Source: Candidatus Harrisonbacteria bacterium RIFCSPHIGHO2_02_FULL_40_20 (GTDB lineage Bacteria > Patescibacteriota > Minisyncoccia > UBA6257 > WO2-44-18). From it: 44,596 nt of DNA. The position numbers and the translations under genes were made by a program. How positions within the stretch are numbered: position 1 is the first letter of the stretch; each line of letters begins with the position of its first letter. The stretch lies in assembly GCA_001818675.1 (NCBI GenBank), contig MHJF01000011.1:1-44596 (forward strand), given 5' to 3'. Below, in pieces: positions 10,987 to 37,679 of the stretch. Below the pieces are notes generated by a model. The model was given only the letters and a program-made list of their open reading frames with translations, did no database searches and was not told the origin of the DNA.

Positions 10987-11016
10987 AAACATAAATTTTT
11001 TAAGAAATTTATGTTT
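10987..11016. repeat. 12-bp perfect stem hairpin
   Basis: AAACATAAATTT...AAATTTATGTTT after rpiB. Confidence 0.5.
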
Positions 11017-11051
11017 GCCCGAACAATCGTTCCTGATTGTTTTAGGGAGAA

Positions 11052-11078
11052 TTGACAAATTTTAGTTTTTTATATAAT
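11052..11078 (+). promoter_or_regulatory. promoter of orphan gene
   Basis: TTGACA and TATAAT, spacer 15 nt (TAATAT at 17 nt is an alternative). Confidence 0.55.
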
Positions 11079-11164
11079 ATATATTTAGTTTTTTAAATCT
11101 GGCGAGTCGAGCTTCAGCTAGTGGCTGAAGTTAGGCGAGCCGCAAAATAAAGGAGGTGACCCAA

Positions 11165-11773
11165 ATGGGGAACCTAATCAAGGAGACGCCGTACTCTGAA
11201 ATTACGGCAACGCTGGAGGCGCTTCAGGCTTTGGGTGTGGAGCGGCGGCATTTTGAGGCAGTCAGAAAAGATCCAACGTTAGCTTCATCAGTGGCACAGG
11301 CGATTATCGCCGGATATATTTTGGCAGACCCGATAAAAGCGATTTTCCCCACCTCCGTAGACTACTCCAAGTCTCTAGCCCAGATGATCAAATCTTGTAA
11401 TTTAAATTGGGTTAACCCCAACATCACCGAAGCTCACTTTCCCAAAGGGAAAGCTGGAGGTAAAGCAGAGTTCAACCTCGAATTCTTTCACCCCAACAAA
11501 GTGATGTCTTCCGATCAAATCTTGATCGAGATGAAGAATCGAAAACTCCGACCTGCCGAGCTTCCAATGGGTCTCGCTTTTGCAGAAAAATACCCCGAAG
11601 AACAGAGAAAGGGTCCCATAGTGATTTTTGGTTCTATGTGGCGGGGCTGGCGTGCCCATCGGCTCGTTCCGTATCTTTACAGTATTTCCGGCAGGCGTTA
11701 TCTGCGTCTGTATTGGTTTGAGGATGGCTGGGATGTGGGCTATTGGTTTCTTGCAGTGCGCGAGCCTGCCTGA
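11165..11773 (+). CDS. orphan conserved-looking protein of unknown function
   Basis: AAAGGAGGTGACCCAAATG; own promoter, hairpin leader and terminator; Trp/Arg-rich C-terminus GSMWRGWRAHRLVPYLYSISGRRYLRLYWFEDGWDVGYWFLAVRE. Confidence 0.7.
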   Translation: MGNLIKETPYSEITATLEALQALGVERRHFEAVRKDPTLASSVAQAIIAGYILADPIKAIFPTSVDYSKSLAQMIKSCNLNWVNPNITEAHFPKGKAGGKAEFNLEFFHPNKVMSSDQILIEMKNRKLRPAELPMGLAFAEKYPEEQRKGPIVIFGSMWRGWRAHRLVPYLYSISGRRYLRLYWFEDGWDVGYWFLAVREPA

Positions 11774-20226: not shown

Positions 20227-20475
20227 ATGGCAAAGATTATTGAAGAGGGTTATCACGGCAAAGAGCCGCTAGTTTATTGGTGGATTGGACGGCGCTGTTC
20301 TTGCGAATGTCGTTGTATTTTTGAACTAGAAAAAAAGGATGAATTGGTTAAAATTCCTAGAAATAATGTTAAGGTTGGCCTTTTTATTTTTGAAGCAAAA
20401 TGTCCTAAGTGTGGTCGGTCTGTTGAGGTTTGGTTTGATTTTGACGACTCGAAAAACTTGAAAGGAATGAGCTAA
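20227..20475 (+). CDS. hypothetical small protein with Cys motifs
   Basis: AAAGGGAGGCGGAAGATG; CSCECRC and CPKC. Confidence 0.6.
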   Translation: MAKIIEEGYHGKEPLVYWWIGRRCSCECRCIFELEKKDELVKIPRNNVKVGLFIFEAKCPKCGRSVEVWFDFDDSKNLKGMS

Positions 20476-22394: not shown

Positions 22395-22970
22395 ATGAAG
22401 AAGATGTCGATGGCTGCGGTTGGACTATTAGCTGGCGTGATGATGACGGGTTGTAGCGTGTTAGATACGAAGTCTGTTAAGCCGGGTCTTTTTGGTGATG
22501 ATGCGGTAAAGATGATGGCGGCATTTGACACCCTAGAGGCGGGCAAGACCACCAATGAGCAGTGGATGACCACTGGGTTTGATCTTTCTAAAGCGAAGAA
22601 TTTTACTGTTTCTCCGGGACCGATGGCGTTGAGGAAAATCCTTGGTGAAGAGGTTTTCCAGTCTACTTATGGATGGTATTCGGCTAAGGGTAAGGTTGAT
22701 GAGCTTTTGGCTGACCTTGCTCCCTATAGCATGGTTGAGATTCCCTTTAAGGTTACAACTAAAAAGGAGAGCCGTTTCTATATTTCTACCAAGTATGAGT
22801 TTACCGAGGGTGATGGAACTGTTTTAACTTTTGTGTTTAAAAATGGCGTTCTGGTTTATAAAGCTCCGTCTCCGCAGAAGTTTAGCGAAGATCATAGTAA
22901 TAGCGCGTTTGCGCAGGGACTTTTTCCTTGGTTGAAGATTGTCAAGGACGTTAAAGGCGTAGTTGAGTGA
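22395..22970 (+). CDS. lipoprotein of unknown function
   Basis: AAAGGAGGGCTATATG; signal peptide with lipobox MMTGCS. Confidence 0.7.
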   Translation: MKKMSMAAVGLLAGVMMTGCSVLDTKSVKPGLFGDDAVKMMAAFDTLEAGKTTNEQWMTTGFDLSKAKNFTVSPGPMALRKILGEEVFQSTYGWYSAKGKVDELLADLAPYSMVEIPFKVTTKKESRFYISTKYEFTEGDGTVLTFVFKNGVLVYKAPSPQKFSEDHSNSAFAQGLFPWLKIVKDVKGVVE

Positions 22971-23116: not shown

Positions 23117-23782
23117 ATGAAAGTTATAAGCAGATTGGTTGGGTTATCGCTGTTTTTATTGATACCGATTGGTTGCGTGTCTCGAGATTTTAAAAGCGTG
23201 AAAACGGGAATTTTAAATGACGACCCTAACGCATTATTGGCGGTTGGTTCCAAGATTGAATTAGGCGTGACAAGCAGGGCAGATTTGGAAGCGCAGGGTT
23301 TTAATTTTTCGGCGCCTAACGTTCAGTTTATCAAAGGCAAGGACGCGTTCCGATATTTATTGTCAAAGAAATTTTTTAAAACAGTTCGATTTTTAGGCGG
23401 AGTGTTAGTGGAAAAACCGATTGATGGCGTTTTGGAATCTTTGGAAAATTATCAGCTTTATTTGATTCTCAATAAAGAGGTTTTAAAAGTAAAAGATAAA
23501 ATTTATCTTTCTACCAAAAATGAATGGCTGGAAATGAATGAGCTCCTTTTTATTCTTATGTTTAAAGACGACAAGGTTGTTTATTATGGCTGGGGACAGA
23601 GCCGTGTGAATCGGTTGGCAACTCAGTATAGCTTTCTTGGTGGAATTTTGAGGTTCAGTTTGGCGGATCCCGATGAGACGTTTGATGAGTTAACGGACCC
23701 CAATCGTAAAGATGAGGATGGTCTGGGGCTAGGTTCGCTTTTCAAGAAGTCAGACGAAAAAGATGAAAAAGATAAGGATTAA
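23117..23782 (+). CDS. lipoprotein paralogous to 22395..22970
   Basis: AAAGGAGGTAGAGGATG; lipobox IPIGC; shared KSVK.G(L/I)..DD, GF(D/N)(L/F)S, RF/KIY(I/L)STK(Y/N)E motifs. Confidence 0.7.
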   Translation: MKVISRLVGLSLFLLIPIGCVSRDFKSVKTGILNDDPNALLAVGSKIELGVTSRADLEAQGFNFSAPNVQFIKGKDAFRYLLSKKFFKTVRFLGGVLVEKPIDGVLESLENYQLYLILNKEVLKVKDKIYLSTKNEWLEMNELLFILMFKDDKVVYYGWGQSRVNRLATQYSFLGGILRFSLADPDETFDELTDPNRKDEDGLGLGSLFKKSDEKDEKDKD

Positions 23783-24052: not shown

Positions 24053-24077
24053 TTAGAAAATTTTGTAGTTGTCCCAA
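24053..24077 (+). other. 5' arm of the pre-16S processing stem
   Basis: TTAGAAAATTTTGTAGTTGTCCCAA pairs with 25861..25885 over 25 bp, two G-U. Confidence 0.75.
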
Positions 24078-24087
24078 TTTATTTTTT

Positions 24088-24155
24088 AGTAATTGGCGAC
24101 TAGTGACTAGCGACTAGAATTTCTAGTGGCTAAACCCTAGTGGCTAGTGGCTAAA
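24088..24155. repeat. TAGTGGCTA-family repeat, copy 2, in the 16S leader
   Basis: GGCGACTAGTGACTAGCGACTAG...CTAGTGGCTAAACCCTAGTGGCTAGTGGCTAA. Confidence 0.65.
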
Positions 24156-24160
24156 TTATT

Positions 24161-25760
<1,600 letters not shown>

Positions 25761-25860
25761 CATTTAATATCGATAATTTATAAATTTATTTTATGAATTT
25801 GGAAAAAGGTTTTGGCCGAGGAGCCTTAAGTCTCGGTTCGGTTGCCTAAAGCAACTGTAG

Positions 25861-25885
25861 TTGGGGCAACTACAAAGTTTTCTAA
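25861..25885 (+). other. 3' arm of the pre-16S processing stem
   Basis: TTGGGGCAACTACAAAGTTTTCTAA, complement of 24053..24077. Confidence 0.75.
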
Positions 25886-25927
25886 GAGTAATCGCTAACC
25901 TGCCGGCAGGCAGGAATAATGCGAATT
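25885..25927. repeat. AGAGTAATCGCTAA[CCTGCCGGCAGGCAGG]AATAATGCGAAT unit
   Basis: Same unit as 17129 and 29996, with nested palindrome. Confidence 0.7.
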
Positions 25928-25956: not shown

Positions 25957-26343
25957 ATGGCTGGGCAAGCAAAAACCGTTTTAATTGTCGAAGACGATGT
26001 TTTTTTGATGGCGCTTTTAAAAAATCGCATGGAAAGCGAAGGCTTTTCGATTTTAGCGGCTAAAGATGGTGAAGAGGCTATTAAGGTCCTCAAGGACATC
26101 AAACCGGACATAATCCTTTTAGATATTATTTTGCCTGGTAAATCGGGATTTGAAGTTTTAGAAGAAATGCAATCTGATCCGCAAATTCAGAATTCACCCG
26201 TAATGATTATTTCTAATTTGGGCCAGGATATGGATATTGATCGTGGGAGAGATCTTGGAGCTTTAGAATATTTTGTGAAAGCTCGGAGTTCAATGGACGA
26301 TGTTATAGTGAAAGTTAGTAATTTCTTAAAAAATAAAAAATAG
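25957..26343 (+). CDS. CheY-like response regulator receiver protein
   Basis: KTVLIVEDDVFLMALLKNRMESEGF..DIILLDIILPGKSGFEVLEEM. Confidence 0.92.
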   Translation: MAGQAKTVLIVEDDVFLMALLKNRMESEGFSILAAKDGEEAIKVLKDIKPDIILLDIILPGKSGFEVLEEMQSDPQIQNSPVMIISNLGQDMDIDRGRDLGALEYFVKARSSMDDVIVKVSNFLKNKK

Positions 26344-34077: not shown

Positions 34078-34356
34078 ATGCCCGAGTGTTTGAATGCTTA
34101 TATCTTTACTCGCCGTCTTGGGCTAATGGATGGCCATGGGCCGGTAATTGTTGCGGCTAGAGATTTAGCTGATGCGGAACAATATTATCGTGATGCTGTT
34201 CGCGAAAAACATAAGGCTTTGTTAAAGGAATGCGGCCAGGAACAAAATTTTTCTCGTCAGGGCGCAGATTCCCTGGCGGAAGAAGATTTGCGTCTTATGG
34301 AAGTCAAAGAAGTTCCGATTGTTTCAGGAGCCTTCCTTCTTAATGAAGGAATGTAA
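34078..34356 (+). CDS. hypothetical protein
   Basis: CAAGGAGGTGGCTAATG; TTGACA at 34002. Confidence 0.6.
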   Translation: MPECLNAYIFTRRLGLMDGHGPVIVAARDLADAEQYYRDAVREKHKALLKECGQEQNFSRQGADSLAEEDLRLMEVKEVPIVSGAFLLNEGM

Positions 34357-37457: not shown

Positions 37458-37679
37458 ATGCCTATCGAAGTTCGTAAAAAGGAAAATGAAAGTCCAAGTT
37501 ATCTTATTAATCGCTTTACCAAAAAGATGCAGCAAAGCGGTGTTTTGCGTGAAGTAAAAAATAGGCGTTTTTATAAACGCACTGTTAATAAAAGCCGCAG
37601 AAGGGTGAAGGCTTTGCATCGCGAAGAAAAAAAGAAAGAATTTTTGAAAGCCAAGAAATTAGGAATCACTTTAAGTTAA
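37458..37679 (+). CDS. rpsU: 30S ribosomal protein S21
   Basis: IEVRKKENESPSYLINRFTKKMQQSGVLREVKNRRFYK. Confidence 0.9.
   Translation: MPIEVRKKENESPSYLINRFTKKMQQSGVLREVKNRRFYKRTVNKSRRRVKALHREEKKKEFLKAKKLGITLS

What the first reader, a model, noticed from the sequence alone, without database searches (positions are those of the whole stretch)
25740..25775. 16S rRNA 3' end has no anti-Shine-Dalgarno sequence
Sequence: the 3' end reads GTAACAAGGCACGCGTAGCGGAAGCTGTGCGTGGATTATTTACATTTAATATC. The canonical bacterial end is ...TGGATCACCTCCTTT. No CCTCC occurs between 25750 and the processing-stem arm at 25861. Yet many genes in the window have near-perfect GGAGG sites, so the ribosome made from this gene could not pair with them. 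Possibilities: another rRNA copy carries the anti-SD; the 3' tail is added or spliced in trans; or the genome has abandoned SD pairing and GGAGG serves something else. The rest of the 16S looks intact.
Basis: partly seen in the sequence, partly recalled or inferred. Interest (0 to 1): 0.78.

Follow-up and report, generated by a model that had tools for sequence, protein, structure and literature searches.

The report
Bacterial ribosome without its mRNA-pairing tail
This tiny uncultured bacterium, like a large share of its relatives, has lost the stretch of ribosomal RNA that normally pairs with the start signal on messenger RNAs, yet a minority of its genes still carry that start signal, so the two halves of a textbook mechanism have come apart.

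Summary
The single 16S gene of this 667-kb Patescibacteria (Parcubacteria-type) genome is full length, but helix 45 is followed by GGATTATTTACATTT instead of GGATCACCTCCTTT. There is no CCTCC from 25700 to 25900 or anywhere in the 16S.

It is not an assembly error. None of the readable 16S ends in the same order has CCTCC, including two single-contig genomes with one 16S each. In a class sample, 54 genomes have lost it, 28 keep a remnant (e.g. CATCTCC) and 46 are canonical. No second 16S, conserved stand-alone CCTCC RNA or substitute tail-mRNA pairing was found.

Most likely the lineage drifted to initiation without the anti-SD. A leaderless signature (TATAAT about 6 nt before ATG) is stronger in genomes that lost it (p=1e-5), and Era, the protein that reads GAUCACCUCC, is absent class-wide.

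The surprise is that strong Shine-Dalgarno sites at canonical spacing persist before about 8-10% of genes, and their enrichment is the same with or without an anti-SD (p=0.85). In this genome these genes are narrowly distributed, so the sites probably travel with accessory genes. Use by some other receptor is not excluded. Anti-SD loss is known elsewhere; its scale here and the retained SDs appear new.

The parts
24158..25764 (+). 16S rRNA gene, full length, without anti-Shine-Dalgarno
   Evidence: Rfam RF00177, 1408 bits, model 1-1533; only 16S in the genome
25728..25751 (+). helix 45, intact stem with GGAA loop
   Evidence: sequence; same helix in relatives
25752..25775 (+). 16S 3' tail GATTATTTACATTTAATATCGATA in place of GATCACCTCC
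   Evidence: relatives have GGATCAWTTAAACT-type tails
25809..25843 (+). conserved hairpin in the pre-16S trailer (GTTTTGGCCGAGGAGCCTTAAGTCTCGGTTCGGTT)
   Evidence: found in 14 of about 28 order members; 4 of 7 stem pairs change on both sides, covariation above all shuffles; not in Rfam
24053..24077 (+). 5' arm of the 16S processing stem
   Evidence: 25-nt inverted repeat, 92% complementary to 25861-25885
25861..25885 (+). 3' arm of the 16S processing stem
25957..26343 (+). response regulator gene next to the 16S; a similar gene follows the 16S in several relatives, so the locus is native
   Evidence: PF00072 4.6e-21; downstream sequence of L002, L003, L019
37458..37679 (+). bS21 (rpsU), the ribosomal protein that normally contacts the anti-SD; no SD in front, TATA-like box close to ATG
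   Evidence: PF01165 32.4 bits; leader sequence
11165..11773 (+). gene with strong SD AAAGGAGGTGACCCAA-ATG; leader and start conserved in G003
20227..20475 (+). gene with strong SD AAAAGGGAGGCGGAAG-ATG
22395..22970 (+). lipoprotein-like gene with SD AAAGGAGGGCTAT-ATG
23117..23782 (+). lipoprotein-like gene just upstream of the 16S, SD AAAAAGGAGGTAGAGG-ATG
34078..34356 (+). gene with SD CAAGGAGGTGGCTA-ATG

Best explanation
[quoted passage not shown] Shown: the tail is missing, the rest of the 16S is kept, there is no second 16S, and nothing found replaces the tail pairing. Inferred mechanism: most genes start translation without mRNA-rRNA pairing, on leaderless mRNAs whose -10 box lies directly before the AUG and probably by coupling inside operons. 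With Era, the assembly factor that reads GAUCACCUCC, gone from the class and few genes depending on SD pairing, the tail drifted to AU-rich sequence. The SDs that persist on roughly a tenth of genes are most likely carried by horizontally acquired or lineage-specific genes with leadered mRNAs and are not read by pairing with this 16S.
For: Single full-length 16S, no CCTCC. All readable ends in the order lack it, including the single-contig genomes G038 and G056. In the class: 54 lost, 28 remnant, 46 canonical, while most of the phylum outside it is canonical or near-canonical. Tail forms are graded (CCTCC, CATCTCC, CATTTCC, AATTC, ATTTAAA). Leaderless signature TATAAT-N5-7-ATG against reversed control: ratio 2.51 lost, 2.12 remnant, 1.49 canonical; lost vs canonical p=1e-5. 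TATAAT peaks at -12 in G003 and is enriched right before starts in G000; it is shifted upstream in SD genes. Era TIGR00436: 0 of 188 class genomes over the cut-off; PMC12641178 likewise says Paceibacteria mostly lack era. Upstream regions do not pair with the genome's own tail above shuffled sequence. SD genes: 25 of 35 have no homolog in 16 partial relatives, against 112 of 400 other genes, p=8e-7; slightly atypical codon use.
Against: If the SDs were only relics or passengers one would expect fewer or weaker ones where the anti-SD is gone, but enrichment is equal and the sites in G000 and G003 are mostly strong. A few homologous gene pairs at 25-53% protein identity have an SD in both genomes. 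A two-hairpin leader restricted to G000 and G003 ends in GGGAG at SD distance from a start codon in about 23 copies. bS21 is retained. No RNA data exist for the true 16S 3' end.
Confidence: 0.72

Rival explanations
1. GGAGG is still a working initiation signal in these aSD-less cells, read by something other than the 16S tail (a ribosomal or accessory protein, or an unknown RNA).
For: SD enrichment is independent of aSD status (lost 2576 near vs 1378 at wrong spacing; canonical 2357 vs 1295; p=0.85). Sharp canonical spacing -12 to -9 in both G000 and G003. SD kept in several homologous pairs. Family-restricted leader with SD at its edge. bS21 kept.
Against: No receptor identified; no conserved stand-alone CCTCC RNA. 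SD genes are narrowly distributed and slightly atypical, as expected for imports. GGG of the leader is also needed for its own stem.
Confidence: 0.2
2. The mature 16S does carry an anti-SD, supplied after transcription (3' addition, trans-splicing or a separate rRNA piece).
For: Would explain persisting SDs; CPR rRNA genes are often interrupted by introns (PMC12641178), and many fragmented 16S matches occur in the order.
Against: No candidate piece conserved between G000 and G003 in 86% and about 62% of their genomes. Graded decay states across the class look like drift. 3' tails differ freely between families.
Confidence: 0.05
3. Assembly or binning error, or an unassembled second 16S with a normal end.
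For: rRNA contigs are often misbinned; a few class genomes show two 16S ends (G242).
Against: 44.6-kb contig with native neighbours; the same state in dozens of independent genomes, including single-contig ones; 16S-response regulator neighbourhood recurs; only one 16S in this genome.
Confidence: 0.02

Closest known systems
Bacteria without a CCUCCU anti-SD (128 organisms; Amin et al. 2018, PMC6107228; Bacteroidetes such as Chryseobacterium, Blattabacterium, Mycoplasma, Carsonella)
   Same: 16S tail after helix 45 lacks CCUCCU; otherwise normal 16S; loss is clustered in clades
   Different: There, genomes without anti-SD generally lack SD motifs too (PMC6107228). Here strong SDs persist at the same level as in relatives with anti-SD. 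The passages I read list no Patescibacteria among the affected clades
Bacteroidia ribosomes with sequestered anti-SD (PMC9976891)
   Same: SD pairing largely unused; bS21 present
   Different: Bacteroidia keep the anti-SD and hide it in a bS21/bS18/bS6 pocket; here the sequence itself is gone
Mammalian mitochondrial small rRNA (noted in PMC10582724)
   Same: No anti-SD after helix 45; mostly leaderless mRNAs (the latter from general knowledge)
   Different: Organelle with a dozen mRNAs; ERAL1 kept there, Era absent here
Reduced ribosome biogenesis in CPR bacteria (PMC12641178)
   Same: Same class (if Paceibacteria), lacks era; that paper notes that the 16S 3' terminus was often not fully annotated
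   Different: A term search of that paper found no mention of Shine-Dalgarno or anti-SD

Membership tests
16S rRNA genes lacking a functional anti-SD | No CCUCC within about 20 nt after helix 45 | tested here: met
   none in 25700-25900
16S rRNA genes lacking a functional anti-SD | Helix 45 and the rest of the 16S intact, so not a truncated or degraded gene | tested here: met
   full-length Rfam match 1408 bits; helix 45 stem perfect
16S rRNA genes lacking a functional anti-SD | No other 16S copy with anti-SD in the genome | tested here: met
   one match in G000 (genome 96% complete); one each in the single-contig aSD-less G038 and G056
16S rRNA genes lacking a functional anti-SD | Mature RNA ends as encoded | not testable with these tools
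   needs RNA 3'-end mapping
Organisms that have abandoned SD-led initiation (as in PMC6107228) | SD motif not enriched before genes | tested here: not met
   59 AGGAGG-N4-8-ATG vs 7 reversed control and 16 at wrong spacing; about 35 of 435 called genes
Organisms with an alternative SD/anti-SD pair | Upstream regions pair with the actual 16S tail better than shuffled sequence | tested here: not met
   own-tail duplex energy -2.24 vs shuffled -2.61 in G000; G003, G028, G009, G038 also show no real gain
Leaderless-mRNA-rich bacteria | -10 box about 6 nt before many start codons | tested here: met
   TATAAT 46 vs 8.5 expected within 20 nt upstream in G000; 53 vs 18 control for TATAAT-N5-7-ATG
Leaderless-mRNA-rich bacteria | Transcripts start at the AUG | not testable with these tools
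   no transcriptome

The most novel reading that the evidence does not exclude
In these Patescibacteria the Shine-Dalgarno signal outlived its rRNA partner: GGAGG at canonical spacing is kept by selection and recognised by aSD-less ribosomes through a receptor other than the 16S tail, used alongside leaderless initiation.
Probability: 0.2. Interest if true: 0.9.

Novelty: new variant of a known kind. Interest (0 to 1): 0.66.

Why it matters
The anti-SD is one of the most conserved stretches of bacterial rRNA. A class in which it is present, half-eroded or gone in sister families is a natural series for asking what the pairing is for, what must change before it can be lost, and whether start sites can be chosen without it. 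The finding that SD enrichment does not follow anti-SD loss contradicts the simple co-loss reported for other bacteria and makes 'what do SDs do without an anti-SD?' testable. It also matters in practice: gene finders that assume SD/anti-SD pairing may set starts wrongly in this group, and rRNA annotation may cut or overrun the 16S end.

Tried and rejected
Second 16S copy: none. Misassembly: same state in dozens of genomes. Foreign contigs supplying the SD genes: they lie on about 20 contigs with uniform GC and tetranucleotide make-up. Trans-acting anti-SD RNA: CCTCC/GGAGG conserved in aligned intergenic sequence fell in tRNAs, terminators, SD leaders or short repeats tied to SD leaders. New tail-mRNA pairing: not above shuffled. 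Co-loss of bS21: present in this window and scattered regardless of aSD. Era loss as the discriminator between canonical and lost genomes: Era is missing from both, so at most a permissive background. Leader element from a foreign donor: in 85,462 GTDB genomes only the G003 record hit. First gene-caller controls in 100-kb samples were too small to rank genomes by SD use, so whole-genome pattern counts were used.

Full report
The finding. The window is contig C11 (44,596 bases) of a 667-kb, 35-contig genome estimated 96% complete. Its 16S gene covers the whole bacterial SSU model at 24158-25764. Helix 45 is perfect, with compensatory pairs and the GGAA loop, but the sequence after it is GGATTATTTACATTTAATATC. 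CCTCC is absent from 25700-25900 and from the 16S.

Not an error. The gene has its own processing stem (24053-24077 with 25861-25885) and is followed by a response regulator gene, as in several relatives. Only one 16S exists in the genome. About 27 further readable 16S ends of the same order all lack CCTCC; typical tails are GGATCAATTAAACT, GGATCATTTAAATT and GGAACAATTAAACT. Two of these genomes are single contigs with a single 16S (G038, G056). One relative, G003, corresponds to the public record Parcubacteria group bacterium Gr01-1014_3, which places the lineage among Parcubacteria (GTDB Paceibacteria by inference).

How far it goes. Outside the class most sampled Patescibacteria keep CACCTCC, and some families have eroded forms. 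Inside the class I classified 128 genomes by the letters after helix 45: 54 lost, 28 with a remnant such as CATCTCC or TTTCTCC, 46 canonical. The graded series suggests repeated erosion, though no tree was made. Some canonical ends in mixed lineages may be misbinned rRNA contigs: G242 has both types, and G476 has a helix 45 unlike that of its genus mate G386.

What replaced it. Base composition before starts shows no SD in most genes, but a TATAAT box directly before the start (46 genes vs 8.5 expected in G000; peak at -12 in G003). This is the mark of leaderless mRNAs. Counted over the class, TATAAT-N5-7-ATG exceeds its reversed control 2.51-fold in lost, 2.12-fold in remnant and 1.49-fold in canonical genomes (lost vs canonical p=1e-5). 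Genomes are related, so this p-value is optimistic. Upstream regions do not pair with the actual tail. Era is not found over its cut-off in any of 188 class genomes, canonical ones included, in line with PMC12641178; Era's known target is GAUCACCUCC (PMC10582724). bS21, which normally touches the anti-SD helix, is kept at 37458-37679.

The surprise. In G000 GGAG peaks at -12 to -9, and 35 of 435 called genes have AGGAG or GGAGG at SD distance; G003 has 33 of 368 with the same spacing. Genome-wide, AGGAGG-N4-8-ATG occurs 59 times in G000 against 7 for the reversed pattern and 16 for a frame-matched wrong spacing. Across the class the near/far ratio is the same in lost (2576/1378) and canonical (2357/1295) genomes, p=0.85; the reversed-pattern control gives the same answer, p=0.95. 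SD use in this class thus does not follow the anti-SD.

What the SD genes are. They include acyl-CoA dehydrogenase, 3-hydroxyacyl-CoA dehydrogenase, thiolase, acyl-CoA ligase, aldehyde and glutamate dehydrogenases, NadA and PrkA, and lipoprotein-like and unknown proteins in this window. They lie on many contigs of uniform composition, are mostly not operon-internal, have -10 boxes further upstream, are narrowly distributed (25 of 35 without homolog in 16 partial genomes vs 112 of 400; p=8e-7) and use slightly atypical codons. This fits genes that come and go by transfer and bring their SD along. Against a pure passenger view: the sites are strong, a few distant homologs keep them in both genomes, and a leader element restricted to G000 and G003 places GGGAG at SD distance in about 23 copies.

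Verdict. Loss of the anti-SD is genuine and clade-wide (shown); its age is inferred from its spread over the order. Initiation mainly by leaderless mRNAs and coupling is inferred from sequence. The persisting SDs are most probably passengers of accessory genes, with a minority chance that they work through another receptor. Anti-SD loss is known in 128 organisms (PMC6107228), where SD motifs are generally lost too. I found no paper in the open library that reports it for Patescibacteria, but subscription papers, including Tsurumaki et al. 2022 and Lim et al. 2012, could not be read.

Noticed in passing
window 25809-25843; L004-L028 downstream of 16S: A hairpin GTTGRYCGAGGAGCCnnAAGTCTCGRYC with covarying stem and conserved loop lies in the pre-16S trailer of 14 of about 28 order genomes; not in Rfam. 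Possibly a maturation signal that took over after the anti-SD hairpin was lost.
   Followed up: partly
L045, L058, L059, L060, L064, L065, L067, L070, L074, L077 (G000); L167, L169, L175, L179-L184 (G003): A structured leader GGCTAAA-[variable hairpin]-TCGCCCGATCAAA-loop-TTTGATTTAGGGAGG sits 3-8 nt before start codons of many different genes, only in these two genomes among those searched; CCC pairs with the GGG of the SD, like a candidate riboswitch or translational regulator. Not in Rfam.
   Followed up: partly
L041 2591-3238, L046 6569-6752, L049 6384-6563, L065 17271-17522, L076 2775-2942: Another recurrent element, ACGGTCGCCTnTGGCGACCTGTCTCTAACGGGATG, appears many times in G000 and in G003; its ATG may be a start codon, giving the enriched 6-mers CTCTAA and AACGGG before genes.
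   Followed up: no
window 24084-24155 and 24367-24447: Arrays of TAGCGACTAG/CTAGTGGCTA repeats lie just upstream of the 16S and inside it as an insertion of about 90 nt; similar repeats are scattered in intergenic regions of G000 and G003.
   Followed up: no
window 11000-11164: Two hairpins and an SD precede a 202-aa gene (MGNLIKETPYSEI...) whose leader and start are 82% identical to a copy in G003; no Pfam family.
   Followed up: partly
L064 7482-16185 and other contigs: This Parcubacteria-type genome carries a set of fatty-acid beta-oxidation genes (acyl-CoA dehydrogenase, 3HCDH/ECH, thiolases, acyl-CoA ligase), unexpected for such a reduced genome, nearly all with SDs.
   Followed up: partly
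G242 contig C6 position 257 and C2 position 172180: Two 16S ends in one bin, one canonical and one without anti-SD: a likely misbinned rRNA contig, a caution for surveys of this kind.
   Followed up: no
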